Source: a virus
Virus record (IMG/VR): IMGVR_UViG_3300025117_000056
Location: 20,983 to 84,982 of that record
Direction: 5' to 3' (one strand)
DNA: 64,000 nt
Part shown: positions 48,647 through 64,000 of the stretch, piece by piece
How the letters are laid out: every line of letters begins with the position of its first letter
Numbering within the stretch: position 1 is the first letter of the stretch
Notes under the pieces: model-generated
Database searches by the model: none
Told to the model about the DNA's origin: nothing
The model's input: only the letters and a program-made list of their open reading frames with translations
Translations under genes and position numbers: made by a program

Positions 48647-48658
48647 TGAGGTATATGT

Positions 48659-49336
48659 ATGACACAATATGAAAAAGACTTAGCTGCTGTTAAACAAAAT
48701 GGTTATGCTTTGAAATATGTTGAACATCAAACTCCCGAATTATGTTTAGCTGCTGTTAATCAATATGGTTATGCTTTACAATTTGTTAAGCATCAAACAG
48801 AAGAAATATGTTTAGCTGCTGTTAAACAAAATGGTTATGCTTTGAAATATGTTAAACATCAGACAGAAGAAATATATTTAGCTGCTGTTAAAGAGAATGG
48901 TATGGCTTTACAATTTGTTAAACATCAAACAGAAGAAATATGTTTAGCTGCTGTTAAACAAGACGGTTATGCTTTGAAATATGTTAAACATCAAACAGAA
49001 GAAATTTGTTTAGCTGCTGTTAAACAAGACGGTTATACTTTGGAATATGTTAACCATCAAACAGAAGAATTATGTTTAGCTGCTGTTAAACAAAATGGTT
49101 ATGTTATACAATATGTTGAATATCAAACAGAAGAAATATGTTTAGCTGCGGTTATAGAGAATGGTTATGCTTTATGTTGGGTTAAACATCAAACAGAAGA
49201 ATTGTGTTTAATTGCAGTCAATCAAGACGTTCGTGCATTGTATTATGTTAAGTCTGAAATTAAAACTAAAGAGTTTATGTTACGTTGCCTTGAAAATAAT
49301 ATAGCTTGTATAAAATATATGGAGATAGAATGCTAA
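48659..49336 (+). CDS. DUF4116-like 22-residue repeat protein, copy 1
   Basis: 225 residues: a 13-residue cap (MTQYEKDLAAVKQ), eight 22-residue units with the core ALxYVKHQT-x-EICLAAV, and a C-terminal cap beginning SEIKTKEFMLR. Such helical repeats (DUF4116 family) form a solenoid. The gene ends with a ribosome site (GGAGATAGA) for the next gene and overlaps it by seven bases. Four more copies exist in the window. No molecular role is known. Confidence 0.85.
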   Translation: MTQYEKDLAAVKQNGYALKYVEHQTPELCLAAVNQYGYALQFVKHQTEEICLAAVKQNGYALKYVKHQTEEIYLAAVKENGMALQFVKHQTEEICLAAVKQDGYALKYVKHQTEEICLAAVKQDGYTLEYVNHQTEELCLAAVKQNGYVIQYVEYQTEEICLAAVIENGYALCWVKHQTEELCLIAVNQDVRALYYVKSEIKTKEFMLRCLENNIACIKYMEIEC

Positions 49337-49587
49337 TTAGAAAATATAAAAATAGAAAAATGTATTGTTCTGAATTGAATAGATGTTTAAAACTAAATGA
49401 TATTAGTAAGTTAGTTAAAAAAGATATTACTTTACAAGTATTAGATTATAATGACGTTGATGTTACAAACGAAATATTAAAGATGATACTAGTTAACTGT
49501 AATATACCAATACAACAACTAATAGAACTTATAAACCAATACTATGAGGTGAAAGATGATAAAAACGAAGGAACAAGCGATAACTAG
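49330..49587 (+). CDS. Small hypothetical protein
   Basis: 85 residues from the ATG at 49330; the ribosome site GGAG lies inside the repeat gene's last codons. Basic N-terminus (LIRKYKNRKMYCSELNRCL), the rest helical. Unknown family. Confidence 0.6.
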   Translation: MLIRKYKNRKMYCSELNRCLKLNDISKLVKKDITLQVLDYNDVDVTNEILKMILVNCNIPIQQLIELINQYYEVKDDKNEGTSDN

Positions 49588-49702
49588 AATTCGATATTTA
49601 GATGATCTATATTTTGAGACTGAAAAGGATAAACAAGGATTGATATTACTAGAAATATATGTTATATTACATAGATTAGCAACAAACTATTATGGAGAAT
49701 AG
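49556..49702 (+). CDS. Small hypothetical protein
   Basis: 48 residues, starting inside the end of the previous gene with GAGGTGAAAG upstream. Helical and charged (LDDLYFETEKDKQGLILLEI). Unknown function. Confidence 0.5.
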   Translation: MIKTKEQAITRIRYLDDLYFETEKDKQGLILLEIYVILHRLATNYYGE

Positions 49703-49705
49703 AAA

Positions 49706-50416
49706 ATGAGTAATTACAAACAAATAGTTAACTTATCAGAATCAATCAACAAAGAAGAAATTAATTATTGGATTGATCACAATCTTAATAATTATTTAAA
49801 AACTAGTCTAGAAAATGTTAGTGAAATAGAGCATATAATTGACTTCTTTTTATCAAAAAAAGAAAAAATCAGACTTCATAAAATGAGCTATCAAGTAGCC
49901 GTTGAACTATCAAAACAATGGATTGAAAAACTAAATAAAAAGTCTGGTGAAATTATAGAAACAGAAGAAGATACTGAATTGTTATTTAAATTTAAAAACG
50001 GTTTTAGAGTGGTTAAATTAGTGTCTGAATCAAGTTATAAAAGAGAAGGCTTATTAATGAGTCATTGTGTAGCAAGTTACTACGCCAAATCGAATATTGA
50101 GATTGTTAGTTTAAGAGATGTAAACAATAAACCGCATTGTACAATTGAATTTCAAAAGACTAACAACGTTATTAATCAAATAAAAGGTAAGGGAAACGGT
50201 AGTATACATCCTAAGTATATTAAAGCTGTAATTAAAATTCTTAAGAAGTTTAACGTTGAAATTCGAGAGAGTGAATTGAAAAACTTAGGTTATATTAATT
50301 TAAATGAAAAACAATGGTTATACTTAGAAGAAAATTTTGAAAATCTAAAGTGGATTATGTTTAATAATACTAAATTTTTATATACTAATTTAAAATATAA
50401 AAGAATTCATAAATAA
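49706..50416 (+). CDS. PcfJ-like protein
   Basis: 236 residues. Segment FKNGFRVVKLVSESSYKREG, then LLMSHCVASYYAKSN, then SLRDVNNKPHCTIEFQK, then INQIKGKGNGSIHPKY match the C-terminal part of PcfJ-like proteins: an H-C pair in the M-x-HCV motif, then TIE and Q-x-x-GKGN. Family members are common in phages and plasmids with unknown activity. Neighbours are DUF4116 and GP88-like genes. Confidence 0.8.
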   Translation: MSNYKQIVNLSESINKEEINYWIDHNLNNYLKTSLENVSEIEHIIDFFLSKKEKIRLHKMSYQVAVELSKQWIEKLNKKSGEIIETEEDTELLFKFKNGFRVVKLVSESSYKREGLLMSHCVASYYAKSNIEIVSLRDVNNKPHCTIEFQKTNNVINQIKGKGNGSIHPKYIKAVIKILKKFNVEIRESELKNLGYINLNEKQWLYLEENFENLKWIMFNNTKFLYTNLKYKRIHK

Positions 50417-50473
50417 CAGCCTTTTTATTAAAAAAGTGGTTATAATTTGAATTATGTTTACTATGAGGTATAT

Positions 50474-51085
50474 ATGAAAGAAAAAAAGAAATTTAGTTTA
50501 GTTGAAAATAATATCAAAGTAGATGCTTTAATATGGAATTTACCAGCTATTATTACATGTAAAGCAAACTTAGAATGTCATAAGTATTGTTATTGCAAAA
50601 AAGATAAACGTTTTCCAAGTGTTGAGGTTAGCCGAACTAATAATTTACAATTCAGTAAGTCAACAGACTTTGTAAATGAACTAACTAACGCTATTAAAAG
50701 TAATAAAAAGCATTCAACGGTTAGACTTCACGCGTCGGGTGATTTTTATAGTGTTCAATACATAAGTGATTGGTATAAAATAATAAGTAATTGTCCAGAA
50801 GTAACTTTTTATGCTTACACAAAACGTGATGATCTATTTACTAAAGAGATATTAGCCGAAAAGCCTAACAACTTAACTTTGATATTTAGCGTTGATGGTT
50901 TATTTGAGACAATTCAAGACATACCAAATATCGATGTTCCACAAGGTTATAACAAGATAGCATTTGTAACAAAAAATGATACAAATTGTGTTGCTCAAAA
51001 AGACGATGATAAAAAATGTATTAGTGGTTGTAAGAAATGCTTGAAGTCATGTAAAGAAAATATTATTGTATTTAAAAAACATTAA
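50474..51085 (+). CDS. GP88-like protein (HASGDFYS type)
   Basis: 203 residues from the ATG at 50474 (GAGGTATAT upstream). CHKYCYCKK at about residue 34 and VRLHASGDFYSVQYISDW at about 85, followed by FYAYTKRDD, are hallmarks of the GP88-like family of phages. Cysteine groups at both ends (C-x-x-x-C-x-C and CISGCKKCLKSC) could bind a metal or Fe-S cluster. Biological role is not known. Confidence 0.8.
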   Translation: MKEKKKFSLVENNIKVDALIWNLPAIITCKANLECHKYCYCKKDKRFPSVEVSRTNNLQFSKSTDFVNELTNAIKSNKKHSTVRLHASGDFYSVQYISDWYKIISNCPEVTFYAYTKRDDLFTKEILAEKPNNLTLIFSVDGLFETIQDIPNIDVPQGYNKIAFVTKNDTNCVAQKDDDKKCISGCKKCLKSCKENIIVFKKH

Positions 51086-51102
51086 TTTTTGGAGATATAG
51101 AA

Positions 51103-51291
51103 ATGACTAAATATAAATTTACAGATCTTTCACCAGAGGCTAAATTAAATGCAATGTTAGATTATATTAGTGGTTGGCAACAAACACATAATGACGATCC
51201 TTTCGATTTAACGGATGCAGAAAGTGCTTGTCTCGATCTTAATGATGAATTATTTTATAACGAAAAAGGAGAATTACTAGATGAATATTAA
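51103..51291 (+). CDS. Small hypothetical phage protein
   Basis: 62 residues, acidic; N-terminus TKYKFTDLSPEAKLNAM resembles other small phage proteins beginning with YKF-x-xLSPEAK. Function unknown. Confidence 0.6.
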   Translation: MTKYKFTDLSPEAKLNAMLDYISGWQQTHNDDPFDLTDAESACLDLNDELFYNEKGELLDEY

Positions 51292-51415
51292 AACACTAAC
51301 TGAAGCTATTATCTTAACATTAATATTACTAATACCTATTATCTATATTACTTATATTAGTTATGAGTACATGAACACTATAAGTAATTTTAGTTATAGT
51401 ATATTTTTAAATTAG
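51281..51415 (+). CDS. Short membrane protein
   Basis: 44 residues, mostly hydrophobic (AIILTLILLIPIIYITYI), starting inside the end of the previous gene, with AAAGGAG upstream. Unknown function. Confidence 0.55.
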   Translation: MNIKTLTEAIILTLILLIPIIYITYISYEYMNTISNFSYSIFLN

Positions 51416-51423
51416 GTGTAAAC

Positions 51424-51579
51424 ATGCAAAACTTAAAACAAAATAAAATAGTCTTACTAATATTGTTGATATTTTGTGGTATCTTAGGTATATTACCAAA
51501 GAATAATGATCTTGGTGATATTATAAATAAGGCGATAGAAAACGTAAGAAATGATTTACAAGGTGTTAAACATGAATGA
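51424..51579 (+). CDS. Small exported or membrane-anchored protein
   Basis: 51 residues: hydrophobic N-terminus (IVLLILLIFCGILGILP) like a lipoprotein or signal anchor with a Cys in the hydrophobic end, then charged. It overlaps the next start. Unknown function; a spanin-like role is conceivable but not shown. Confidence 0.5.
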   Translation: MQNLKQNKIVLLILLIFCGILGILPKNNDLGDIINKAIENVRNDLQGVKHE

Positions 51580-51724
51580 AATAATAGATAAAATGATAGA
51601 CATACAAGAGAACATGTTGATAATCGAAGAGTCTTTACTTTATAATAGTGATAAAAATTTACAGTTAAAACTAAATGAATTGTATAATCAATGGTTAAAT
51701 TATAAAAACTTACTAACAAAATAG
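51572..51724 (+). CDS. Small helical protein
   Basis: 50 residues, starting eight bases before the end of the previous gene, helical and charged (IIDKMIDIQENMLIIEE). It may act with the membrane protein overlapping it; unknown. Confidence 0.5.
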   Translation: MNEIIDKMIDIQENMLIIEESLLYNSDKNLQLKLNELYNQWLNYKNLLTK

Positions 51725-51732
51725 AGGTGTTT

Positions 51733-52449
51733 ATGGGACAATATCATATTATTTATAACATAGATAAAAAAGAATTCATAGATGCGCGTAGCTTTGATAG
51801 TGGTTTAAAATTGTTTGAGTATCCGTTTTATGGTGTTATGATGTTTGCTTTTAATTTGTTGTTAAGCAATTCTAACGGTCGTGGTGGTGGTGACTTATAC
51901 GTAAAGCATGATTATGATAAAAAAACATATAAGAGAATAGAAACAGAAGAAACAAAGTTAAAAGAAGCTATTTTATCTCAAGTGTCCAGTAGATGGTCTG
52001 GTGATAGAATAGTTGTACAAGGTGATTATGTTAACGAAAACGATAAAGCTTATATAAATGATGTTGATATAGAAAACAATTATACCAATATTTCTAAATT
52101 AGTTTTAAATGTTCTAACGTTAGATGATTATTTACGTGAAAAAATACCAAGTGGTTATTCATGGAAATATTTAGCTAACAAAAAGGATAACAAATATAAT
52201 AACGCTTTAGAATTAATAAAAGATACTAAAGGTAGAATGTTTAGGATTAAGTTTATTAAAAAAAGTGGTGAAATAAGAGAGTTAACTGTTAGAAATGGAG
52301 TTACTAAACATATTAAAGGTGTTGAAAGAAAGAAAAATGATAACAATTTAGTGTTATATGATATGAATAATAAAAGTTACAAGACTATTATTAAAGATAA
52401 TATTGTTAGTATAAAATTTAATGGTGTTATTTATAATTTCGATAGATAA
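51733..52449 (+). CDS. Phage protein of the MGQYH...GRGGGDL type
   Basis: 238 residues. N-terminal MGQYHIIYNIDKKEF, then SNSNGRGGGDLYV and SSRWSGDRIVVQGDY match a common uncharacterised phage family. A separate C-terminal beta-barrel-like domain (about residues 160-238, FIKKSGEIRELTVRNGV, then TIIKDNIVSIKFNG) is also seen alone in other phages. Function unknown. Confidence 0.75.
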   Translation: MGQYHIIYNIDKKEFIDARSFDSGLKLFEYPFYGVMMFAFNLLLSNSNGRGGGDLYVKHDYDKKTYKRIETEETKLKEAILSQVSSRWSGDRIVVQGDYVNENDKAYINDVDIENNYTNISKLVLNVLTLDDYLREKIPSGYSWKYLANKKDNKYNNALELIKDTKGRMFRIKFIKKSGEIRELTVRNGVTKHIKGVERKKNDNNLVLYDMNNKSYKTIIKDNIVSIKFNGVIYNFDR

Positions 52450-52501
52450 TAATATAGTATTATCAAATGTACATTCTTGAACGAAGTAAAGGAAAGTTAA
52501 A

Positions 52502-53041
52502 ATGACACAATATGAAAACGACTTAGCTTGGATTAAAGACAATGGTTGTAATTTACGTTATATTTACAATCAGACCGATGAGATTTGTTTAGCTGTTGTT
52601 AAACAAAACGGTAGAGCTTTGGAATATGTTAAACATCAGACAGAAGAAATATGTTTAGCTGCTGTTAAAGAGAATGGTATGGCTTTACAATTTGTTAAAC
52701 ATCAAACAGAAGAAATATGTTTAGCTGCTGTTAAGCAAAATGGTTATGCTTTACTATATGTTAAGCATCAAACTGATGAATTATGTTTAGCTGCTGTCAA
52801 TCAAAATGGTTATGCTTTGAAATATGTTGAATATCAAACACCAGAATTATGCTTAGTTGCTGTTACTAATTATGGTAATGCTTTGAAATATGTTAAGCAT
52901 CAAACTGACGAATTATGCTTAGTTGCGATTAAAAAATATGAATGGTGTTTGTGTTATGTTAAACCAGAGATTAAAACTAAAGATTTTTTATTACGATGTT
53001 TAGAAATTAATATAGCTTGTATAAAATATATGGAGATATAG
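52502..53041 (+). CDS. DUF4116-like repeat protein, copy 2
   Basis: 179 residues: cap MTQYENDLAWIKD, six 22-residue units and the C-terminal cap KPEIKTKDFLLRCLE. Its first 227 bases are identical to those of copy 3 (53941) except one base. The end overlaps the ribosome site of the following gene. A repeat spacer (ATGTACATTCTTGAACGAAG) precedes it. Confidence 0.85.
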   Translation: MTQYENDLAWIKDNGCNLRYIYNQTDEICLAVVKQNGRALEYVKHQTEEICLAAVKENGMALQFVKHQTEEICLAAVKQNGYALLYVKHQTDELCLAAVNQNGYALKYVEYQTPELCLVAVTNYGNALKYVKHQTDELCLVAIKKYEWCLCYVKPEIKTKDFLLRCLEINIACIKYMEI

Positions 53042-53043
53042 AA

Positions 53044-53328
53044 ATGAATAATATAATAGATTTTCCTAAAATAAAACAATTACAAGAGGAACTAAATAAA
53101 TTACTAGAAAGCAATCCAGAAAGAAGGGAATATCAAGAGTGGTTAAATAAACAACTAGATAAATATGGTGATGGTTCTACTCCAGAAAGTAGACATAATA
53201 GAATGTTATTTTTTAATGAATTACTAAAGGATAAAATAAGATCTTTAAACAAAGCTTTGTTAGATTGTAAAGTAGATTTAGAAAAGATTAAGACTAAAAT
53301 AAAGGATATAGAAAATGATAGTAAATAA
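53044..53328 (+). CDS. Coiled-coil hypothetical protein
   Basis: 94 residues from the ATG at 53044, with GGAGATATAGAA from the repeat gene's end. Mostly a charged helix. Overlaps the next start by 14 bases. Unknown function. Confidence 0.6.
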   Translation: MNNIIDFPKIKQLQEELNKLLESNPERREYQEWLNKQLDKYGDGSTPESRHNRMLFFNELLKDKIRSLNKALLDCKVDLEKIKTKIKDIENDSK

Positions 53329-53581
53329 AAGGTATCACAGTCCTTTGTTATATAAAGTAAATAAACGAAACAACTATCAAGTCTGGTGTGCTATAGTTGA
53401 AGATAATATATTAAAGATTATGTCATACGAACAATCGTATAATAGATTTAATAAACGTAACTATATAAAAGAATATGATAACAAAGAAACTGCTATTAAT
53501 GATTTGAATAAACGTTATGAAGAAAAAAGAAAGAAAGGATTCAGAAATTGGAACGAAATAAACAAAGATATATCAACTTAG
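53315..53581 (+). CDS. Hypothetical basic protein
   Basis: 88 residues, Lys/Arg/Asn-rich with a strand pattern NYQVWCAIVEDNILKIMSY, reminiscent of small WGR-like domains but too weak to claim. Start has GGATATAGAAA upstream. Overlaps the next gene. Confidence 0.55.
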   Translation: MIVNKRYHSPLLYKVNKRNNYQVWCAIVEDNILKIMSYEQSYNRFNKRNYIKEYDNKETAINDLNKRYEEKRKKGFRNWNEINKDIST

Positions 53582-53820
53582 GTTGGTTTATATTACAAAG
53601 TAAATATTGTTATTACTTAGAAGTTAAGTTTAAACATTTAAATGATACAGAATATGATAAAATAGAGGATGAATATAAACAGTTAGCTAAAGATCTAGGG
53701 TTACCAATAAGTGCTTGTGATATGGTCGGTTTTGATTTAAATAGGGCAAGTTGTAGATTGGTTAAAGATAAACTAGAGCAAACAAAGAGTGTTGACTTTG
53801 GTTTATTAAATGAAGTATAA
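53548..53820 (+). CDS. Small protein resembling NAD-ligase domain Ia
   Basis: 90 residues with a TTG start (AAAGGATTCAGAAA upstream). CYYLEVKFKHLNDTEYDKIEDEY and then MVGFDLNRASCRLV resemble small phage proteins related to the NMN-binding domain Ia of NAD-dependent DNA ligases (YY-x-x-x-x-P-xx-xDxEYD). No ligase catalytic domain is present, so it cannot join DNA alone. The role is unknown. Confidence 0.55.
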   Translation: MERNKQRYINLGWFILQSKYCYYLEVKFKHLNDTEYDKIEDEYKQLAKDLGLPISACDMVGFDLNRASCRLVKDKLEQTKSVDFGLLNEV

Positions 53821-53868
53821 TTACTAAATATCACTTCTTGAACGAAGTGAAAGATAATTAGGTATAGT

Positions 53869-53925
53869 ATGATTTGGATTATATTTATTTGTTCAATATT
53901 ATTTTTTATGTGGTTAATAGGATAA
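53869..53925 (+). CDS. Tiny membrane peptide
   Basis: 18 residues (MIWIIFICSILFFMWLIG) with TAGGTATAGT upstream, in a gap before a repeat gene. Likely membrane; weak evidence because of its length. Confidence 0.3.
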   Translation: MIWIIFICSILFFMWLIG

Positions 53926-53940
53926 AAAAATGAGGCGTAT

Positions 53941-54480
53941 ATGACACAATATGAAAACGACTTAGCTTGGATTAAAGACAATGGTTGTAATTTACGTTAT
54001 ATTTACAATCAGACCGATGAGATTTGTTTAGCTGTTGTTAAACAAAACGGTAGAGCTTTGGAATATGTTAAACATCAGACAGAAGAAATATGTTTAGCTG
54101 CTGTTAAAGAGAATGGTACGGCTTTACAATTTGTTAAACATCAAACAGAAGAAATATGTTTAGCTGCGGTTATAGAGAATGGTTATGCTATATGTTGGGT
54201 TAAACATCAAACAGAAGAATTGTGTTTAATTGCTGTTAAAAAATATAGTGATGTTTTGCGTTTTGTTAAACATCAAACAGAAGAAATTTGTTTAGCTGCT
54301 GTTAAACAAGACGGTTATGCTTTGGAATATGTTAAACATCAAACTGATGAAATATGTTTAGCTGCTGTTAATCAATATGGTAATGCTTTGAAATATGTTA
54401 AACCAGAGATTAAAACGGAAGAATTTTTATTACGATGTTTAGAAACTAATATAGCTTGTATAAAATATATGGAGATATAG
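53941..54480 (+). CDS. DUF4116-like repeat protein, copy 3
   Basis: 179 residues, six repeat units between MTQYENDLAWIKD and KPEIKTEEFLLRCLE. The first 227 bases match copy 2 except one base, and the last 215 bases (from about 54266) match the end of copy 4. The 3' end carries the ribosome site of the exonuclease gene. Confidence 0.85.
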   Translation: MTQYENDLAWIKDNGCNLRYIYNQTDEICLAVVKQNGRALEYVKHQTEEICLAAVKENGTALQFVKHQTEEICLAAVIENGYAICWVKHQTEELCLIAVKKYSDVLRFVKHQTEEICLAAVKQDGYALEYVKHQTDEICLAAVNQYGNALKYVKPEIKTEEFLLRCLETNIACIKYMEI

Positions 54481-54482
54481 AA

Positions 54483-55532
54483 ATGAAGATATCTTGGAGT
54501 AGAATAGAGAAGTATTTAACTTGTCCTAAATACTATTATTACTATTACATTTGTGGTTATAGAGACACAACAATTAGTTCAGCTTTATTCTTTGGTACTA
54601 GTTTGGGTACAACTTGGCAACAAATACTTTTAACTAAAAAAGAACAGCTAACAGAAGAAGAAAAAAAGATAATCAACATTAATCCGTATATCTTTTTTGA
54701 TAATTTATATAAAACAGTTAAGATAAATGATAACATTTACGATTTAGAAGATTGTATGTATGCTCGGTATTTTAAAAGTGATTTTGATAGTGATATACTA
54801 AATACTGAGGATAATGAACGAATAACAACATATAAACAAAAGAATAACATAGAAGAAAGTTTATCTTTTGATATATTGTATCCTAAATATGAAACTTATT
54901 CAACTAATGAAAAAGAAACAAAGTTTATTAACTTCCTATTTTGGGTGTCAACAAGACGTAAAGCTTATATGTTAATCGATATTTATATAAAAGAAGTATT
55001 ACCTTTGGTTCATAAAGTACATAGAATTGAAGGTAAAATATCTATAGAAAATACTAATGGTGATGTTCTTGAAGGATTTCTAGACGTTGATGCAGACTTT
55101 GAATATCCTAAAGATAATGTACAAAGAGTAATATTAGACCATAAAACTAGTAGTGTTAAATATAGTTCTAATGCTATTTTAACAAAGCAACAGCTTGCTT
55201 TATATAGCTATTCTGAAGGAATTGAGACACAAGGGTATATAATTGGATTAAAAAAGATAAAGAAACCTAAAATTGGTACAAATAAAGGTAAATTACAAGC
55301 AGAAATACAAATATTAGTTGATAAAATATCAGAAGAAAGACAAGAAGAAGTTATAAAAGAAGCAGATTCTGTCTTACAAAAGATAAAGAAACAAGAGTTT
55401 GAAAAGGATTATAGTAAAGGTTGTTTAGTATTTGGTAAATCTTGTTGTTATAAACCTTTATGTCATAAAGGATGTAATCCTGATTATTTGTATATAAAAA
55501 AAGGTGAGAATATAAGCAAAAAATGGGAGTAA
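54483..55532 (+). CDS. Cas4/RecB-like PD-(D/E)XK exonuclease with a cysteine cluster
   Basis: 349 residues from the ATG at 54483. SWSRIEKYLTCPKYYYYYY at the N-terminus (C14) and a C-terminal cluster C-x-x-x-x-x-x-CC-x-x-x-x-C-x-x-x-C (about residues 315-333) suggest an iron-sulfur or zinc site as in Cas4 and AddB. The nuclease core has LEGFLDVDADF then VILDHKTSSVKY and QLALYSY, the D...(D/E)xK...QLxxY pattern. Probably a DNA end-processing nuclease acting with the Rad52-like protein at 58969. Confidence 0.85.
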   Translation: MKISWSRIEKYLTCPKYYYYYYICGYRDTTISSALFFGTSLGTTWQQILLTKKEQLTEEEKKIININPYIFFDNLYKTVKINDNIYDLEDCMYARYFKSDFDSDILNTEDNERITTYKQKNNIEESLSFDILYPKYETYSTNEKETKFINFLFWVSTRRKAYMLIDIYIKEVLPLVHKVHRIEGKISIENTNGDVLEGFLDVDADFEYPKDNVQRVILDHKTSSVKYSSNAILTKQQLALYSYSEGIETQGYIIGLKKIKKPKIGTNKGKLQAEIQILVDKISEERQEEVIKEADSVLQKIKKQEFEKDYSKGCLVFGKSCCYKPLCHKGCNPDYLYIKKGENISKKWE

Positions 55533-55614
55533 TTACCGAATGTAAATGGTGTATTATTACCGAATGTAATGAATTATCGTGAATGATTAGAATTAAATAT
55601 GGTGAGGTATATGT

Positions 55615-56550
55615 ATGACACAATATGAAAAAGATTTAGCTGCTGTTAAAGAAAATGGTAGAGCTTTGAAATATATTGAACATCAAACACCAGAATTATG
55701 TTTAACTGCTGTTAATCAAAATGGTTATGCTTTGAAATATGTTGAATATCAAACAGAAGAAATATGTTTAGCCGCTGTTAAGGAAAATAGTTATGCTTTG
55801 AAATATGTTAAACATCAGACTCCAGAACTTTGTATGATTGCTGTTAAAGAAGACGGTCTTACTTTATGTTTTGTTAAACAACAAACAGAAGAAATATGTT
55901 TAGCTGCTGTTAAACAGAATGGTTATGCTTTGGACTATGTTAAACATCAGACAGAAGAAATATACTTAGCCGCTGTTAAGCAAAATGGTTATGCTTTACA
56001 ATTGGTTAAACAACAAACTGATGAAATATGTTTAGCTGCTGTTAATCAATATGGTTATGCTTTACAATTGGTTAAACAACAAACTGATGAAATATGTTTA
56101 GCTGCTGTTAAACAAAATGGTTATGCTTTGAAATATGTTAAACATCAGACTCCAGAACTTTGTATGATTGCTGTTAAAGAAGACGGTCTTACTTTATGTT
56201 TTGTTAAACAACAAACAGAAGAAATATATTTAGCTGCTGTTAAAGAGAATGGTATGGCTTTACAATTTGTTAAACATCAAACAGAAGAAATATGTTTAGC
56301 TGCTGTTAAACAAGACGGTTATGCTTTGAAATATGTTAAACATCAAACAGAAGAAATTTGTTTAGCTGCTGTTAAACAAGACGGTTATGCTTTGGAATAT
56401 GTTAAACATCAAACTGATGAAATATGTTTAGCTGCTGTTAATCAATATGGTAATGCTTTGAAATATGTTAAACCAGAGATTAAAACGGAAGAATTTTTAT
56501 TACGATGTTTAGAAACTAATATAGCTTGTATAAAATATATGGAGATATAG
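55615..56550 (+). CDS. DUF4116-like repeat protein, copy 4 (12 units)
   Basis: 311 residues, the longest complete copy: cap MTQYEKDLAAVKE, twelve 22-residue units and the C-terminal cap KPEIKTEEFLLRCLE. It carries an internal duplication 330 bases (five units) apart, with 107 identical bases, and a tandem identical 66-base pair near 55985-56110. The last 215 bases are identical to copy 3. Same function question as copy 1. Confidence 0.85.
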   Translation: MTQYEKDLAAVKENGRALKYIEHQTPELCLTAVNQNGYALKYVEYQTEEICLAAVKENSYALKYVKHQTPELCMIAVKEDGLTLCFVKQQTEEICLAAVKQNGYALDYVKHQTEEIYLAAVKQNGYALQLVKQQTDEICLAAVNQYGYALQLVKQQTDEICLAAVKQNGYALKYVKHQTPELCMIAVKEDGLTLCFVKQQTEEIYLAAVKENGMALQFVKHQTEEICLAAVKQDGYALKYVKHQTEEICLAAVKQDGYALEYVKHQTDEICLAAVNQYGNALKYVKPEIKTEEFLLRCLETNIACIKYMEI

Positions 56551-56551
56551 T

Positions 56552-56869
56552 ATGCGTTATATTATAGTTTTTATTATATTTATAATACTAATATCATTAG
56601 ATACATCACAATCTAATTTAAAAAATCAATCTTGTTATCTAGGTTATGTTGTTAAACTAGAAAAACAAGAAAAGAAGTATATACTAAATATAAAACTTAA
56701 TAACGAAATCCAAGTATTAACCATTAATGAAAATAGTGATGTAAAATTCATTGATTTATTACAAAATGTTACAGGTAAAAATGTTTTAATTGGTATAAAA
56801 TATATGTATACTAATAATGAATATAGTGATAAACTTGAAAATGTTAAAATAATAAGGAGCAAGATATGA
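56552..56869 (+). CDS. Membrane-anchored or exported hypothetical protein
   Basis: 105 residues with an N-terminal hydrophobic helix (YIIVFIIFIILISL) and a beta-like exposed part. Start follows the repeat gene's stop with GGAGATATAGT. Unknown function. Confidence 0.65.
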   Translation: MRYIIVFIIFIILISLDTSQSNLKNQSCYLGYVVKLEKQEKKYILNIKLNNEIQVLTINENSDVKFIDLLQNVTGKNVLIGIKYMYTNNEYSDKLENVKIIRSKI

Positions 56870-57755: not shown

Positions 57756-57771
57756 TATATGAGGGTATAAT

Positions 57772-58107: not shown

Positions 58108-58541
58108 AAATTTTCGAACTAGCTAAAGAATTAGGTTTAAAAGGTCATGAGTTACTTAACTTGATCAAAGAAAACGACTATGGTTATACAGCAATTACAC
58201 AGACTTTAGATGTTGATGATGAAAATAAGTTTAGAAATGAATTTAAAGATGTTAAAAAAGAAGTAACAATTGAAGAAATAAAAGAAGAAGTAGATCCTGA
58301 GATAAAAGAACATGATAAAATTGAGATGGTTGGTATTTATTATGATTATAAAAGAAAGAAATATATACCAATAACAATGATTATATTACCAGAACAGTTT
58401 GAAACATTAAACGTTGTTAAAAATGGAGAATATAATACCATTTACAATGCTAAAAGTAAAATGGGAGAACTATCAACAAAGGCTAAGTTTTTTAATCCTA
58501 GTACATTAGAAAGACTTATAGATAAAAGGAGATTAAAATGA
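58104..58541 (+). CDS. Protein with an IF2 N-terminal-like domain
   Basis: 145 residues. The N-terminus (FELAKELGLKGHELLNLIKEND, then QTLDVDDENKFRNEF) resembles the small helical IF2_N domain of bacterial translation initiation factor 2. There is no GTPase domain. The remainder is charged with a beta part (KKYIPITMIILPEQFE). A role in translation or in binding another protein is speculative. Confidence 0.65.
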   Translation: MKIFELAKELGLKGHELLNLIKENDYGYTAITQTLDVDDENKFRNEFKDVKKEVTIEEIKEEVDPEIKEHDKIEMVGIYYDYKRKKYIPITMIILPEQFETLNVVKNGEYNTIYNAKSKMGELSTKAKFFNPSTLERLIDKRRLK

Positions 58542-58873
58542 TATTATTAAAAGAAGTATTTGATAAATTACCAGAAAAGGTGAGGAAGTTAATAACTGAA
58601 GAAAATGAAAAATATTGGGTAAATAGAAAAGGTAATATAAATCCATATATTACTAATATGGGATATTATCATGAATATCTTGGTTATAATGTATATTATG
58701 AGTTTTGTAAAAATATTGAAACATTAGAAGATGTTAAATTAATAACTCAAATTGATATACCTAAATTATTAAAATTAGAAAAAGAGAATGAAGAACTATA
58801 CAAATTAAAAAAAGAATATGATAATCTAAAGAAAAGTATAGAAGTTATAAAAGATCAATTTAATAAAGGATAA
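58538..58873 (+). CDS. Coiled-coil hypothetical protein
   Basis: 111 residues, a C-terminal charged coiled coil (about residues 75-110, LKLEKENEELYKLKKEYDN). Coupled to the preceding gene. Unknown function. Confidence 0.6.
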   Translation: MILLKEVFDKLPEKVRKLITEENEKYWVNRKGNINPYITNMGYYHEYLGYNVYYEFCKNIETLEDVKLITQIDIPKLLKLEKENEELYKLKKEYDNLKKSIEVIKDQFNKG

Positions 58874-58878
58874 TTGAA

Positions 58879-58959
58879 ATGATTAAGGAAATATTCACAT
58901 ACGTTTGGGTTAGTATATTTGTTATTTCGTTGATAATATTAATGTTAAATCTTAACTAA
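58879..58959 (+). CDS. Short membrane peptide
   Basis: 26 residues (YVWVSIFVISLIILML) with AAAGGATAATTG upstream. Likely membrane-inserted. Unknown function. Confidence 0.5.
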   Translation: MIKEIFTYVWVSIFVISLIILMLNLN

Positions 58960-58968
58960 GGAGTATAA

Positions 58969-59547
58969 ATGACAGAAAAAGAAATTTATGAAAAACTATC
59001 ATCACCTTTTCCATCAGAAGCTTTTCAGGTAGATTCTAGTAGAGGATTTGATTTATCTAGTTTAAAAGCTCAGTATATAGTTGAGCGTCTTAACGAAGTG
59101 CTTGGTATTGGTGGTTGGGATTTAGTTGGTGCTTATGAAAGAATTAAAGATGATATAATCTTTCAAGGTAAATTGTTCATAAGAATTGATGATAAAACTT
59201 ATGAACATGATGGGGTTGGACATTGTGGACCTAAGAAAAACGTTGGTGATCAATATAAATCTGCTAAAACTGATTGTCTTAGTAAAACAGCAAGTTGGTT
59301 TGGTGTTGGTAATGAATGTTTTAAAGGTTTAGTTGATCCTAAAACGATTAAGAAAGGAAATAATGTAACAAATTACACTCAAACAACAAAACCGAGTGTA
59401 AATAATTACAAAACAGAAGAAAAAAAGGAGGAAAAACAAGAAGAAATACCAACTTTCAGCAAGAAAAAGAAACAAATGGAAGAAAAAACAGTAGAAACTG
59501 TTAAAAATGAAGAAAATACAGCAGTAAAAAGTACAAGTAAATGGTGA
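58969..59547 (+). CDS. Rad52-like single-strand annealing protein
   Basis: 192 residues. RFDLSS-type start (RGFDLSSLKAQYIVERLN), LGIGGWDL, FQGKLFIRIDD and NVGDQYKSAKTDCLSKTASWFGVG match Rad52/Rad22/Sak-type annealing proteins of phages. The C-terminal 60 residues are Lys/Glu-rich and disordered. It anneals complementary single strands during phage recombination and pairs logically with the exonuclease at 54483. Confidence 0.85.
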   Translation: MTEKEIYEKLSSPFPSEAFQVDSSRGFDLSSLKAQYIVERLNEVLGIGGWDLVGAYERIKDDIIFQGKLFIRIDDKTYEHDGVGHCGPKKNVGDQYKSAKTDCLSKTASWFGVGNECFKGLVDPKTIKKGNNVTNYTQTTKPSVNNYKTEEKKEEKQEEIPTFSKKKKQMEEKTVETVKNEENTAVKSTSKW

Positions 59548-59553
59548 TAATAT

Positions 59554-59721
59554 ATGTTTAAACAAATCTTAATTGATGATATTTTATATTTAATTAATAG
59601 TAATGATGAATTAGTAACATATTGGGGTATTAATGGTGTTGGTCAAATACATATAGATCGAATATTTCCAATTTTAATTATAAATTTATTAACTAAGGAG
59701 AATTTATGGCTAGATATTTAA
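59554..59721 (+). CDS. Small hypothetical protein
   Basis: 55 residues, hydrophobic-rich, between the annealing protein and the next gene, which it overlaps by 16 bases. No family. Confidence 0.5.
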   Translation: MFKQILIDDILYLINSNDELVTYWGINGVGQIHIDRIFPILIINLLTKENLWLDI

Positions 59722-60002
59722 ATGTTGGTTCTATTACTAGAAGAAAAGGTAAAGAAGGCGGTGAAGTGTTACAATTTGAGTTAGACAATGTATCGTTATC
59801 TGAATTTATTGATTTGATAAAGGAACACGGTAAACGTTATTTAGGTGATATGAATAAAGAAGATATTAAAGCTGGACAAGAGTTGAAATGGGATGATCCT
59901 AAGAGAATACCAAGATTAACTTTTGGCGTCTTTGAACCAAAGACGACTAACGAAAATGTTCGTAAATTCGTAATGTTTAATATTTCGAAAAAAGTTGACT
60001 AA
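59706..60002 (+). CDS. Hypothetical protein of the replication region
   Basis: 98 residues, mixed strand/helix, with CTAAGGAGAATTT upstream. RYLNVGSITRRKGKEGG is basic and may bind nucleic acid. Next to recombination and replication genes; role unknown. Confidence 0.65.
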   Translation: MARYLNVGSITRRKGKEGGEVLQFELDNVSLSEFIDLIKEHGKRYLGDMNKEDIKAGQELKWDDPKRIPRLTFGVFEPKTTNENVRKFVMFNISKKVD

Positions 60003-60022
60003 ATAGGGTATCATATGTTATA

Positions 60023-60060
60023 AATAGGGTAGTGAAGAAATATCATTACCCTATTTTTTT
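60023..60060 (+). terminator. Strong rho-independent terminator
   Basis: A 13-base stem (60023-60035 with 60043-60055, one G-T pair) with a 7-base loop, followed by a run of T that overlaps the 3' arm and continues to 60060. It separates the small-gene operon from the primase-helicase gene. Confidence 0.9.
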
Positions 60061-60079
60061 GTAACCAATGAGGTTTTAA

Positions 60080-62113
60080 ATGGAAAAATTGTATTATAGA
60101 TTGTGTAAAGGTATGAATTCGAAAGGTAAACTCTATGCTATAGAAGACAATATGTATAACCATATTGATGATTATGAAAAGGATTGGTACTTTTCAACAT
60201 ATTTATATACCGAAGAACAAAGAAGAGAAATAGAAACTGAAATAGAAGAAGTTGATAAACAAGGTAACAAATATACAACAATTAGGGGTGTATCTGGTAT
60301 TACTGATGTTAAAACAAATAAGATGTGTTTTGACTTCGATAGTCATGATAACCTCGAATTAGCTCGTAAAGACACTTTAAAGCTAGTTGACAAACTTATT
60401 GGTGAAGGTATACCTAAGAAGGATATACAGCTCTGTTATAGCGGTTCTAAAGGCTTTGGTGTCATTATAGAGACAGACACATACTTTACTCCAGAAGAGA
60501 TTAAACGCACAGCATCATTCTTGACTACGGATTCTGAAACTTTTGATAGTAAAATGTATAACGCTAGTAGGATTTTTAGATGTCCACTAACGAAACATCC
60601 AGTAAGTGGGTTGTATAAGTATCCTTTAACTTATACCGAATTGAAAGATAAACATGCTAATGAAATAAAGGAATTAGCTAAAAGTAATGATATAGATCCT
60701 TTAGATTACCAAGACTATTTTGATGTTGTACAATTACCAGAAAAGATAGTACATTTAAAGAATATTAAACCTAAAGTTAGTGTTAGTGAAGTTGATAGAT
60801 TAGAAATGGTAACGAAACTAGATGATATTAACTTTTCAGAAAGACCTAGTTTTTTAACACCAGCAAAATATATGTTACATTTAGGTCACTTTCAAGAAGG
60901 TCAAAGAAGTCATTCAGCTATGATACTATGTTCAACATATAAAAAAGCTGGATTTAGTAAAACAGATTCTTATAGATTGCTTAAAAGTGTAATGGAGAGA
61001 CAATCAGAAATTAATAACGTTGATAGATTTCCAGATGAAGAATTGTGGAATAACGTAGTTTCTGTTGTATATGGTAGTAACTGGAACGGTGGTACTTATA
61101 ATAGTGATACTAGTGATTTGTTAGTTAAAACTAATTTATTACTTCCTGAATATTTAAGAGATACTAATAAAGGTAGTGGATTGGTTGACAATGATTATAT
61201 TTTTGGTCAATTTAAAAAATTCATGGATGAGATTGATAAAAATACACTAAGATTTGGTATTAAAGATTTAGATAATAAGGTTAAATTACTAACAGGTACA
61301 ACAGTTGGTGTTTTGGGTATACCATCATCAGGTAAAACCGCTTTAGGTATGAGTTTGTTGGCTAATAATTCTAAAGTTGGTGAACAATCTATATTTTATA
61401 GCTTAGATATGTCAATAAACATTATAGCTTATAGACAAGTTCAAGCTATAACTGGTTGGGATGATGATATGATTAAAAATACATATAAAACAAATCCTAA
61501 ACTATTCTTTGATAAATACAACGAATCTAAAGAAACTTTATTTAAAAACGTTACTTATTGTTTTAGACATGGAACAACACCAGCGGATATTCGCTCTGAT
61601 ATAGTTAATTATGAACAAAATACAGGAAAGAAGGTGAGGTTGGTGTTAATTGATTATCTTGAAAATGTTCAAAGTGGTTATACAGACCCAACTATAGGTT
61701 CTGGAGTTGTTGCACAAAGTTTATCAAATATTGCAGCAGAACTAAACGTTTTGATTGTTATATTACTTCAAACACAAAAAAATATACAACCAACAGAAGA
61801 AATAACATCAATGCGAAGCATTAAAGGGGCTTCAATAATTGAACAATCTCTTAGTGTTGCGATAGGTATAAGTCGTTTAGGACACTCATCAACTTATTCA
61901 GACTATGATACTAGTATGCAAGTTAATGTTATTAAGAATAGATTTGGTTCTCAATCTAGAGTTGATGTTGGGTGGTCTGGTAATTATGCTAAAATTAGAG
62001 ATCTTACACAAGAAGATAGGAAGAATATTTCTGAAATTATTAGATTGAAGAAAGAAGATGCTGAAGAAAGAGAAGAAGAAAGAAGACAAAATAGAGGAAA
62101 CGGTTGGGGTTAA
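60080..62113 (+). CDS. Primase-helicase (AEP primase fused to RecA-like helicase)
   Basis: 677 residues. The N-terminal part has FDFDSHD (D85, D87) and SGSKGFG (121-127), as in archaeo-eukaryotic-type primases. The C-terminal part has GIPSSGKT (Walker A, 413-420), LVLIDYLENV (Walker B near 521-530) and a later LLQTQKN, as in DnaB/RecA-like helicases. It would prime and unwind DNA at the phage fork. Gene directly follows a strong terminator, so its promoter is not obvious in the 20 bases before it. Confidence 0.85.
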   Translation: MEKLYYRLCKGMNSKGKLYAIEDNMYNHIDDYEKDWYFSTYLYTEEQRREIETEIEEVDKQGNKYTTIRGVSGITDVKTNKMCFDFDSHDNLELARKDTLKLVDKLIGEGIPKKDIQLCYSGSKGFGVIIETDTYFTPEEIKRTASFLTTDSETFDSKMYNASRIFRCPLTKHPVSGLYKYPLTYTELKDKHANEIKELAKSNDIDPLDYQDYFDVVQLPEKIVHLKNIKPKVSVSEVDRLEMVTKLDDINFSERPSFLTPAKYMLHLGHFQEGQRSHSAMILCSTYKKAGFSKTDSYRLLKSVMERQSEINNVDRFPDEELWNNVVSVVYGSNWNGGTYNSDTSDLLVKTNLLLPEYLRDTNKGSGLVDNDYIFGQFKKFMDEIDKNTLRFGIKDLDNKVKLLTGTTVGVLGIPSSGKTALGMSLLANNSKVGEQSIFYSLDMSINIIAYRQVQAITGWDDDMIKNTYKTNPKLFFDKYNESKETLFKNVTYCFRHGTTPADIRSDIVNYEQNTGKKVRLVLIDYLENVQSGYTDPTIGSGVVAQSLSNIAAELNVLIVILLQTQKNIQPTEEITSMRSIKGASIIEQSLSVAIGISRLGHSSTYSDYDTSMQVNVIKNRFGSQSRVDVGWSGNYAKIRDLTQEDRKNISEIIRLKKEDAEEREEERRQNRGNGWG

Positions 62114-62145
62114 AATATATAATTTTTTAAAAAAGGGATTAATTA

Positions 62146-62673
62146 ATGAAAAAATCATGTAAAATTGCTATAACATGGGATTGTAATCTAGATTGTTCTT
62201 ATTGTTGTAATAAGTTAGATGCTGTACAAAATAAGTTTCAAAATTCAACTTTAGATGAAATACTTGTTCAAAATTATGAAAATATATCAATTACTGGTGG
62301 AGAAATAGGTATATGTCCAGAAAAACTTAACAATTATCTTGAGATTTTAGGAAAAACAAAATCGAAATTATGGTTATATACTAACGGTAGATTAATGCCA
62401 CAAATGTTAATTAGACCTGAAAGAATTAATGGTATTAATATTAGCTGTCATAATAGTATATCACACAGTTTGTTATGTGTGAATCAATGGGAAAAATATA
62501 AGGATATAAATATTAGATTACATATACAAGATGAAAAATATGATGACTATCTTATTAGTATGCAAAAATTAATAGAGTTATATATTCCTAAACAAAATAT
62601 TAAATTGTGGACGTTAGATAAATGTTTTGACAATATTGAAGAAGATTGGTATTATATATCAGGAGTTAATTAA
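62146..62673 (+). CDS. Small radical SAM protein
   Basis: 175 residues with the C-x-x-x-C-x-x-C iron-sulfur motif CNLDCSYC (C13, C17, C20) and a GGE-type SAM-binding motif ITGGEIG (about 49-55). It is short for the superfamily (usually 200-350), so it may lack a C-terminal substrate domain. Related small phage enzymes include QueE-like ones, but the substrate cannot be told. It follows the primase-helicase gene. Confidence 0.8.
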   Translation: MKKSCKIAITWDCNLDCSYCCNKLDAVQNKFQNSTLDEILVQNYENISITGGEIGICPEKLNNYLEILGKTKSKLWLYTNGRLMPQMLIRPERINGINISCHNSISHSLLCVNQWEKYKDINIRLHIQDEKYDDYLISMQKLIELYIPKQNIKLWTLDKCFDNIEEDWYYISGVN

Positions 62674-62675
62674 AA

Positions 62676-62777
62676 ATGATTTTACTTATATGTTTACTAA
62701 TAATATTTTATGTAATTTTATTTATTGGGATTATATCTTATAAAGGTAAGAACTATATTAAAAAAACAATAAAATAA
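62676..62777 (+). CDS. Short membrane peptide
   Basis: 33 residues (ILLICLLIIFYVILFIGIISY, then a basic tail). Starts just behind the radical SAM gene. Unknown function. Confidence 0.5.
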   Translation: MILLICLLIIFYVILFIGIISYKGKNYIKKTIK

Positions 62778-62796
62778 TCGAACGGAGGTGAGATAT

Positions 62797-63150
62797 ATGA
62801 CGTTAAAAGAGTGTATAGAAAAAGGATTTAAGAAATTTACTAGACCTAATTATAAAAAATATAATGTATATTGTTTCTTTGATTCAGATAATGCATTACA
62901 ATACATGGATAGAGATTGGGTAGGATTTGATACTAATTATATAGTATTTAAAGATGATTTAATTGCTGATGATTGGGAAAAATATAAAGTAAAAGTTAAA
63001 AAAGAAAGATACATTTATTTACATAAATATGATATGATGAAAGAATTTAGAGTGGATTATAGACTATTTCTATCAATAGAAGATGCTGAAGAAATTAGAA
63101 CATCCATGGCTGGAAAAATATTAAAAATAGAATGGGAAGAGGAGGAATAA
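62797..63150 (+). CDS. Hypothetical protein
   Basis: 117 residues from the ATG at 62797 with GGAGGTGAGATAT upstream; a GTG nine bases earlier is part of that site. Contains a DDLIADDWEKYK segment like DUF2829-type phage proteins (helix then AxDW). Not certain. Confidence 0.6.
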   Translation: MTLKECIEKGFKKFTRPNYKKYNVYCFFDSDNALQYMDRDWVGFDTNYIVFKDDLIADDWEKYKVKVKKERYIYLHKYDMMKEFRVDYRLFLSIEDAEEIRTSMAGKILKIEWEEEE

Positions 63151-63443
63151 TGAGCTATACTGAACATTTAGCAAGACAATTAGTTGAAGAAGCTATGAAA
63201 ACAGAACAATCGTTAATCTTAGAACAGTTAACTGATTTAGTTTCTAGAAATTTGTTAGTTATAGAATCAACACAGCCAGTTATAATTCAAGATTGTTGTA
63301 GTAATAAATTAACAATACAAAAGAAAATAAAGTTGACTTTAAAAGATAAAGAATATATACTAAAACTAGAAGAAGAGAATAAAGAATTAAGATCTATAAT
63401 TAAAAACTTAACTATAAGTTTAACTAATTATAAAGATATTTAA
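63150..63443 (+). CDS. Hypothetical protein
   Basis: 97 residues from the ATG at 63150 (TAATG overlap, GAGGAGG upstream). Coiled-coil C-terminus (LKLEEENKELRSIIKNL). No family. Confidence 0.6.
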   Translation: MSYTEHLARQLVEEAMKTEQSLILEQLTDLVSRNLLVIESTQPVIIQDCCSNKLTIQKKIKLTLKDKEYILKLEEENKELRSIIKNLTISLTNYKDI

Positions 63444-63457
63444 CAAAAGGAATCAAA

Positions 63458-63736
63458 ATGAATAGTAAACTACTTACACATTTTTTAAACAAAACAGTAT
63501 TTGTAACATTTCAACATGGTTCTAAAGTATTTGGTGAAGAAGATTTTGCTATAGAAGGCATCATTGTTGATATAGACAATGAGTTTATCTATATTAAATC
63601 AACAACAGTTAACGATAGAATTGCAGCATTTAAGATAAGTTTAATTGAGAGTATACAGGATGCTGAAGGAACTGAAGATATTGAAGAAGATTATGATAAA
63701 TTTGAAAGTAATAATGGTGGTAATATACTGAATTGA
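63458..63736 (+). CDS. Hypothetical protein
   Basis: 92 residues, acidic C-terminus, beta-rich start with TVFVTFQHGSKVFG. AAAAGGAATCAAA upstream. Unknown family. Confidence 0.6.
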   Translation: MNSKLLTHFLNKTVFVTFQHGSKVFGEEDFAIEGIIVDIDNEFIYIKSTTVNDRIAAFKISLIESIQDAEGTEDIEEDYDKFESNNGGNILN

Positions 63737-63768
63737 GGTGTTATTGCTGAAAGAATTGAGGTATATGT

Positions 63769-64000
63769 ATGACAGAATATGAAAAAGATTTAGCTATGGT
63801 TAAACGAGATAGTTATGCTTTGGAATACGTTAAACATCAAACTTATGAATTATGTTTAGCTGTGGTTATAGAGAATGGTTATGCTTTGAAATATGTTGAA
63901 CATCAAACTCCCGAATTATGTTTAGCTGCTGTTAATCAATATGGTTATGCTTTACAATTTGTTAAGCATCAAACAGAAGAAATATGTTTAGCTGCTGTTA
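63769..64000 (+). CDS. DUF4116-like repeat protein, copy 5 (3' end off the window)
   Basis: The ATG at 63769 (GAGGTATATGT upstream) opens a frame that reads MTEYEKDLAMVKRDSYAL and then 22-residue repeat units up to the window edge. From about 63878 its sequence is identical to a stretch of copy 1 near 48703. The C-terminal part lies outside the window. Confidence 0.8.
   Translation, partial: MTEYEKDLAMVKRDSYALEYVKHQTYELCLAVVIENGYALKYVEHQTPELCLAAVNQYGYALQFVKHQTEEICLAAV

What the first reader, a model, noticed from the sequence alone, without database searches (positions are those of the whole stretch)
48659..64000. Family of five DUF4116-like repeat genes that share and swap 66-base units
Five genes (48659, 52502, 53941, 55615, 63769) encode proteins built from 22-residue (66-base) units between the same N-terminal cap (MTQYE-x-DL) and C-terminal cap (IKT-x-x-FLLRCLE). 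Unit numbers differ (8, 6, 6, 12, and unknown). Long stretches are identical between copies: the first 227 bases of copies 2 and 3, the last 215 bases of copies 3 and 4, and a block of copies 1 and 5, while copy 4 has its own duplication 330 bases apart. This points to ongoing recombination that makes new repeat arrays. The last codons of each complete copy also carry the ribosome site of the next, unrelated gene, so the family moves as a cassette. The DUF4116 match is from memory of the family; its role in phages is not known to me.
Basis: partly seen in the sequence, partly recalled or inferred. Interest (0 to 1): 0.85.

Follow-up and report, generated by a model that had tools for sequence, protein, structure and literature searches.

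The report
Phage repertoire of shuffled solenoid proteins
A bacterial virus carries six related genes built from the same 66-base unit, the copies have exchanged pieces with one another, and one position of the unit changes unusually fast, which suggests a set of diversified protein-binding rods whose targets are still unknown.

Summary
The record is a phage of about 85 kb whose map closes into a circle, with six DUF4116 genes (3 to 12 units of 22 residues, shared caps), five starting in the window. Long identical blocks sit next to blocks 18-24% diverged, so mosaic exchange between copies is well supported. "Ongoing" is not shown: five records of this phage agree over all parts compared, except one poly-C tract; among eight other closely related contig pairs, one differs by exactly one 66-base unit. 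Four diverged relatives show no DUF4116 match, so the family was most likely gained and then multiplied. AlphaFold gives a confident alpha-solenoid (pLDDT 97). New here: unit position 15 is the most variable, with more amino-acid than silent change in 13 of 17 viral contigs; position 18, one helix turn away, is second; the same two lead in bacterial loci, without the excess over silent change. Best reading: accessory early protein-binding solenoids, diversified by unit exchange and selection, probably acting on host proteins (defence or toxin effectors). Binding is likely, the target unproven. The papers searched describe no function for DUF4116.

The parts
48659..49336 (+). copy 1 (c1), 225 aa, 8 units; its bases 40-299 (48698-48957) are identical to copy 5 in a register shifted by one unit
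52502..53041 (+). copy 2 (c2), 179 aa, 6 units; first 227 b match copy 3 with 1 mismatch, the remaining 313 b have 67
53941..54480 (+). copy 3 (c3), 179 aa, 6 units; 5' part like copy 2, last 217 b (54264-54480) identical to copy 4
55615..56550 (+). copy 4 (c4), 311 aa, 12 units; internal 108-b exact repeat (55790-55897 and 56120-56227, 330 b apart); 174 b (56215-56388) identical to copy 1 (48863-49036)
63769..64000 (+). 5' part of copy 5 (c5); the gene continues, after 6 bases missing from this record, at record base 1 (L009:1-236); whole gene 157 aa in L015:11203-11676
48648..48658 (+). leader GAGGTATATGT with ribosome-site-like GAGG, also before copies 4 (55604-55614) and 5 (63758-63768); no other plus-strand occurrence before an ATG in window or L009
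52488..52501 (+). second leader type AAAGGAAAGTTAAA, also before copy 6 outside the window; no other plus-strand occurrence before an ATG in window or L009
49319..49327 (+). ATGGAGATA: last codons of copy 1 carrying GGAG before the start of the next, unrelated gene (49330)
53030..53038 (+). ATGGAGATA: same element at the end of copy 2, before the gene at 53044
54469..54477 (+). ATGGAGATA: same element at the end of copy 3, before the gene at 54483
56539..56547 (+). ATGGAGATA: same element at the end of copy 4, before the gene at 56552

Best explanation
The six genes are an accessory, multi-copy family of alpha-solenoid proteins (DUF4116) lying in the early/replication gene region. Each protein is a rod of two-helix, 22-residue units between an N-cap and a C-cap. 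Shown by calls: the fold (a confident prediction), the mosaic exchange of units between copies, no DUF4116 match in four diverged relatives, and the concentration of amino-acid change at positions 15 and 18 of the unit's second helix. Inferred: the family was gained and then multiplied in this lineage; the proteins are binding scaffolds with no catalytic part; positions 15 and 18 are exposed; unit exchange, loss and duplication plus selection on position 15 make new binding surfaces; the targets are host proteins met inside the cell. My first guess for the targets is toxin-like or defence effectors, which these proteins would block as immunity proteins do. Rough odds: binding scaffold 0.8; target is a host defence or toxin protein 0.35.
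For: AF2 model of copy 1: mean pLDDT 97.3, pTM 0.88, two helices per unit (unit positions 3-12 and 14-19). Mosaic: 1 of 227 against 67 of 313 mismatches (c2/c3); 56 of 254 against 0 of 217 (c3/c4); 174-b identical block between parts with 33 of 135 and 16 of 87 mismatches (c1/c4); 260-b block (c1/c5). Position 15 has the best mean variability rank of 22 positions (1.6); mean pN / mean pS 1.38 (bootstrap 1.19-1.62), pN>pS in 13 of the 17 viral contigs that passed the filter, of 49 considered; position 18 is second (rank 3.7, ratio 1.02). In 12 of 79 bacterial or archaeal loci that passed a similar filter the same two positions lead (ranks 2.2 and 4.0); with the Lokiarchaeota locus and two of three C. 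difficile loci left out, 2.0 and 4.2. L051: almost no silent change (pS 0.02) but Y/N/D/W at position 15. Accessory: 0 of 4 diverged relatives has a DUF4116 match though late and early genes are shared. The copies lie among plus-strand early/replication genes. Giant-virus entries named F-box or protein-kinase proteins are among the closest predicted structures. Ankyrin (with Tox-AHH) and HEAT repeats are listed as immunity proteins of polymorphic toxins (PMC3482391, passages read). In Vibrio ostreicida two DUF4116 genes lie among paralogous genes downstream of a Tox-PAAR-like gene.
Against: No toxin or defence family was found next to the copies here (10 neighbours, 5 of them without any Pfam match at E<=0.01), and no conserved partner in other viruses (at most 2 of 107 neighbours share a Pfam family) or in bacteria (at most 4 of 89). 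Position 15 does not exceed silent change in the bacterial/archaeal loci (ratio 0.95, 0.79-1.12) or in 4 of 17 viral contigs. In this phage both constant and variable positions as groups show pN below pS (0.46 and 0.65), and near-identical unit pairs show 52 amino-acid to 33 silent codon changes, so constraint dominates overall. The comparison is not corrected for kinship of the contigs. No solved structure matches convincingly by sequence (best E 0.026) or by Foldseek at E<=0.001. Exposure of positions 15 and 18 was judged from helix positions, not coordinates. Host unknown.
Confidence: 0.5

Rival explanations
1. Selfish or neutral repeat growth: 66-b units multiply and homogenise by slippage and homologous recombination, and the proteins have no selected binding role.
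For: Nearest other unit lies in the same genome for 87% of 590 units against 6% expected, as plain tandem growth would give; one exact-unit difference with a frameshift between 99.5% identical contigs.
Against: All six copies of this phage are open with both caps; the conserved positions are constrained (pN/pS 0.46); change is focused on positions 15 and 18 both in viral contigs and in bacterial/archaeal loci.
Confidence: 0.15
2. Binding scaffolds acting on phage or housekeeping host proteins (assembly, replication or transcription control), not on defence or toxin proteins.
For: Copies lie among replication and regulation genes here; neighbours elsewhere include methyltransferases, regulators, helicase loaders and endonucleases, one or two each.
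Against: No match in 4 of 4 relatives that keep replication genes; excess amino-acid change at position 15 fits conflict better than housekeeping.
Confidence: 0.25
3. Modular nucleic-acid readers, one unit per base, in the manner of PUF, PPR or TAL repeats.
For: Two variable positions per unit with restricted alphabets: 15 mostly Y/L/D/W/N/F/H/R, 18 mostly Q/K/R/E.
Against: Positions 15 and 18 are hardly coupled (mutual information z 2.0 against within-genome shuffles; other pairs reach 6.5) and the window frames have net charge 0 to -9.
Confidence: 0.05
4. The mosaic identities are produced by the assembler, which misjoined reads of near-identical repeats.
For: Both ends of this record lie in copy 5 at 127-b exact matches to copy 1, as a de Bruijn break would leave; a DUF4116 gene touches a contig end in 13 of 55 other contigs against 4.2 expected. 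The records of this phage may share an assembler.
Against: Three other long records agree with this one over every copy fetched, with breaks at copy 5 (two) and copy 2. The 29-kb record also agrees but holds only the first 140 b of copy 1.
Confidence: 0.07

Closest known systems
DUF4116 (Pfam PF13475)
   Same: Sequence family: every window copy exceeds the gathering score; an alpha-solenoid model of the family was reported before (PMC8078820, passages read).
   Different: No function is given in the passages of the two papers that name the family, and mosaic exchange or fast-changing positions are not mentioned in them.
DUF4116 genes of Pseudoalteromonas phage vB_PtuP_Slicky01 (OQ508958)
   Same: Three DUF4116 genes with 22-residue QTPEICLAAV-type units on the strand opposite the structural genes.
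   Different: Other caps (VDTSVFEPETLEL...); no other window-phage protein of at least 90 aa was detected in the 26-kb stretch of Slicky01 searched; the three genes lie within about 2.3 kb rather than dispersed.
Immunity proteins made of ankyrin or HEAT repeats in polymorphic-toxin loci (PMC3482391)
   Same: Helical-repeat proteins in multi-gene arrays, thought to bind toxins directly (passages read); DUF4116 genes in such a setting in Vibrio ostreicida.
   Different: DUF4116 is not ankyrin or HEAT; no toxin gene is seen next to the phage copies.
Armadillo/HEAT and designed alphaRep solenoids
   Same: Helical-repeat rod; best VIA-align Z 7.3 to alphaRep 6bzx.
   Different: Z under 8 for a repeat protein may mean only a common arrangement (note); no sequence relation found.
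Giant-virus DUF4116 proteins (Klosneuvirus, Hokovirus, Marseillevirus LCMAC201)
   Same: Closest predicted structures in the viral library, up to 54-63% identity over aligned stretches.
   Different: Several entries there are named F-box or kinase proteins; the phage copies show no second domain at a credible score.

Membership tests
DUF4116 (PF13475) | score above the curated cut-off of 24.9 bits | tested here: met
   48.9 to 237.8 bits for the five window copies
DUF4116 (PF13475) | alpha-solenoid of helical repeats (earlier model in PMC8078820) | tested here: met
   AF2 model of copy 1, pLDDT 97.3, 20 regular helices; prediction only
Ankyrin or HEAT/armadillo repeat family | sequence match to the family's Pfam profiles | tested here: not met
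   no such family among Pfam matches at E<=0.001 for the five copies
Ankyrin or HEAT/armadillo repeat family | same fold | tested here: inconclusive
   VIA-align Z up to 7.3, below the level at which repeat matches are informative
Polymorphic-toxin immunity protein | gene next to a recognisable toxin | tested here: not met
   10 neighbours of the copies give no toxin family, 5 of 10 have no Pfam match at all; a Tox-PAAR-like gene lies upstream only in the bacterial locus L093
Polymorphic-toxin immunity protein | binds and blocks a toxin | not testable with these tools
   needs protein experiments
Diversity-generating retroelement target | reverse transcriptase in the genome | tested here: not met
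   RVT_1: 0 matches in this record; found in 3 of 14 control genomes
Modular nucleic-acid reader (PUF/PPR/TAL type) | coupled specificity residues; nucleic-acid-binding charge | tested here: inconclusive
   15-18 coupling only z 2.0; net charge 0 to -9; both speak against, neither excludes
Known anti-phage defence protein (PADLOC) | strong profile match | tested here: not met
   two of the copies scanned: best E 0.0022 for copy 1, none for copy 4 at E<=0.01

The most novel reading that the evidence does not exclude
DUF4116 genes in phages, giant viruses and some bacteria are a general recombining repertoire of target-binding rods: dispersed cassettes trade 66-base units so that each genome keeps a changing panel of solenoids aimed, through positions 15 and 18, at rival or host proteins. 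This would be a viral analogue of a combinatorial binder library, made by homologous recombination and not by a retroelement.
Probability: 0.25. Interest if true: 0.85.

Novelty: new variant of a known kind. Interest (0 to 1): 0.6.

Why it matters
DUF4116 is found in phages, giant viruses, bacteria of several phyla and Lokiarchaeota records, yet the two papers in the library that name it give no function in the passages read. Locating the fast-changing positions of the unit turns an unknown repeat into a testable binding hypothesis with named residues. If the targets are defence or toxin proteins, the family would be a large, unread source of natural inhibitors. The result also warns that these genes tend to break assemblies, so that phage records end inside them and copies can be missed.

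Tried and rejected
Retroelement-driven diversity: no reverse transcriptase match in the record. Two-residue nucleic-acid code: weak coupling, acidic proteins. Known defence families: no convincing PADLOC match; NCBIfam matches all lie far under their cut-offs. Solved-structure relatives: none convincing by sequence or Foldseek (0 of 538 matches at E<=0.001). A common partner gene: none. Slicky01 as a relative of the phage: the 28% portal alignment is full of gaps and tblastn found nothing in the 26-kb stretch, so I claim no kinship. Further scans with the putative capsid gene (named by its place; no PHROG match) and the exonuclease-like gene at 54483 returned only records of the same phage. 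Exact empty sites: not found; relatives are too diverged. In one search the 128-b match listed for contig 28584_450 is one stretch of DNA read in two overlapping frames and is not counted as an exchange. In one search the breakpoint tests other than 2/3 and 3/4 are not used, because the copies run out of register near the caps. Literature searches with little return; for I saw listings only, apart from passages of PMC3482391.

Filters and dropped rows: one search kept the best 80 of 102 relatives (70 loci, 58 contigs, 55 not this phage). One search kept the best 80 of 88 (79 loci, at least two titled Lokiarchaeota). In one search I left out 11 contigs (3 records of this phage, already represented, and 8 near-duplicates of other contigs) and then contigs with fewer than 8 distinct units or 20 pairs; 17 of 49 passed (count). 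The unit pattern restricts 11 positions, so only 3, 8, 11-16, 18, 21 and 22 could vary freely; 15 leads among these. (8 units, 10 pairs): 12 of 79 loci passed, 11 bacterial (three C. difficile) and one Lokiarchaeota. In one search ten pairs were compared; eight have stretches of at least 90% identity, two (L032 with L030 and L031) do not. Neighbour scans: one search used 89 proteins, my selection from the 183 candidates plus three more genes of L093; one search used 107 of 130 candidates.
Full report
What is there. The window is bases 20983-84982 of an 84,982-base virus record. The record carries phage genes: portal, terminase large subunit, DnaB-like helicase with a primase part, DNA polymerase and exonucleases. 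Portal, terminase and their long neighbours lie on the minus strand in the first half of the window, early and replication genes on the plus strand in the second half. All copies are in the plus-strand region. Five DUF4116 genes start in the window and a sixth lies at L009:13612-13956. Pfam confirms the family in every window copy, and the profile finds 31 stretches in the record and none in 14 control genomes.

Copy 5 and circularity. The record ends inside copy 5 and starts inside the end of a copy. The last 127 bases equal copy 1 bases 40-166 and the first 127 bases equal copy 1 bases 173-299. Record G003 (IMGVR 3300025121_000002) reads straight through with 6 bases in between and gives one 157-aa gene. 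The map therefore closes, at about 84,988 bases, and this record seems to have been cut where its assembler met the repeat. Records G001 and G002 break in the same gene, G003 in copy 2, and the 29-kb record G008 starts in copy 1. The same happens elsewhere: 13 of 55 other contigs have a DUF4116 gene touching a contig end, against 4.2 expected from gene and contig lengths (simulated P 0.0001; 11 of 47 without near-duplicates, 3.5 expected, P 0.0004).

Mosaic structure. Units differ from each other at a median of 13 of 66 bases, yet 8 of 780 pairs are identical. In register, copy 2 and copy 3 have 1 mismatch in 227 bases and then 67 in 313; copy 3 and copy 4 differ at 56 of 254 bases (N-cap left out) and then share the last 217; copy 1 and copy 4 share 174 bases between parts with 33 of 135 and 16 of 87 mismatches; copy 1 and copy 5 share 260 bases one unit out of register, with diverged sequence on both sides. 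Breakpoint tests for 2/3 and 3/4 give p=0.001 by site and by codon permutation, the smallest value 999 permutations allow; the tests for other pairs are confounded by loss of register near the caps and are not used. Copy 3 thus looks composed of a copy-2-like start and a copy-4-like end. Across viral contigs the nearest unit is in the same genome for 87% of 590 units (6% expected), and for 88% of 434 units of multi-gene genomes when the unit's own gene is left out.

Is exchange going on now? The fetched parts of G001, G002, G003 and G008 are identical to this record, apart from a poly-C tract in G003, so unit numbers are fixed among them; but they are the same phage, a weak test. Eight pairs of other contigs with 90-100% identity were compared; seven show no unit change in the aligned genes, and one (L041/L071) differs by exactly one 66-base unit together with a 1-base frameshift. 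Turnover therefore exists but is not rapid at this scale.

Gain and spread. A scan with the SbcD-like exonuclease found four diverged records of 79-85 kb (45-47% identity). Of 34 late-region open frames, 24 have a match in at least one of the four, and several early genes match in similar order, yet 0 of 4 has a DUF4116 match; their completeness is not stated, so absence is likely but not certain. The family was most simply gained in this lineage and then multiplied to six dispersed copies. Five of six copies have a short leader of one of two types, seen before no other start on the plus strand of the 84,000 bases searched, and the complete window copies end with codons that hold a ribosome-site-like sequence for the next gene. 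Such a unit could drop between two genes without harm, but similar overlaps occur in 11 of 36 other pairs, so this is only suggestive. No homology with Slicky01 beyond DUF4116 was detected in the stretch searched, so the family probably also occurs in unrelated phages.

Fold and variable face. AlphaFold2 with 32 sequences gives pLDDT 97.3 and pTM 0.88: a solenoid with a 10-residue and a 6-residue helix per unit. PDB searches give no clear match; the closest predicted viral structures are DUF4116 proteins of giant viruses, some named F-box or kinase proteins. Position 15 and then 18 change most: mean ranks 1.6 and 3.7 in the 17 of 49 viral contigs that passed the filter, 2.2 and 4.0 in 12 of 79 bacterial or archaeal loci, 2.0 and 4.2 in nine bacterial loci with only one C. 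difficile kept. Position 15 exceeds the pooled silent rate in the viral set (ratio 1.38, 1.19-1.62) but not in the other (0.95, 0.79-1.12; 0.91 in the nine); position 18 is about equal to it in viruses (1.02) and lower in the rest (0.77; 0.73). In near-identical unit pairs, 16 of 52 amino-acid changes fall on 15 or 18. L051 is the clearest case: silent change 0.02, yet position 15 is Y, N, D or W. The contigs were not corrected for kinship. The two positions lie three residues apart on the second helix, away from the conserved A16, L17 and V20, so an exposed face is likely; I had no coordinates to check it.

Function. The absence of a second domain, the solenoid fold, the variable positions and the place among early genes point to a binding scaffold. 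A host target is inferred from the accessory distribution and the excess change at position 15. Two outside clues favour blockers of toxin-like effectors: a Vibrio ostreicida locus where two DUF4116 genes sit among paralogous genes after a Tox-PAAR-like gene (that the gene next to it is an AHH-type nuclease is my recollection of a motif, and Pfam gave no match for it), and the listing of ankyrin repeats as immunity proteins for Tox-AHH (PMC3482391, passages read). Against this, no toxin family was found beside the phage copies and no common partner elsewhere.

Verdict. The likely meaning is a diversified set of protein-binding solenoids. The mosaic and the variable positions are shown; the binding role is inferred and the targets are open.

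Noticed in passing
window 19690-19699: A run of ten C beyond the end of the putative capsid gene is seven C longer in record G003, and record G008 matches up to this tract. Lengths of G001 and G002 suggest further variants (not read). A slippage tract or a sequencing artefact.
   Followed up: partly
window 29909-31891: The terminase large subunit reads as if a small intein-like stretch (ending ...LVTHNS) interrupts its Walker A region; judged by eye.
   Followed up: no
L009:4865-7383: The DNA polymerase seems split over two adjacent reading frames (590 and 237 aa); two of four relatives match both parts next to each other.
   Followed up: partly
window 16667-17296, 20842-21507; L009:9728-10390: Several open frames look like homing or HNH endonucleases (by eye).
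   Followed up: no
window 49330-49587: The gene after copy 1 matches the PHB/PHA accumulation regulator DNA-binding domain (E 1.3e-9), a possible hint at a host that stores PHB.
   Followed up: no
L065 (IMGVR 3300028584_000450): A tandem run of DUF4116 genes, several ending in EYWRLLYG; in several the end overlaps the start of the next.
   Followed up: partly
L094, L095: DUF4116 genes in contigs titled Candidatus Lokiarchaeota.
   Followed up: no
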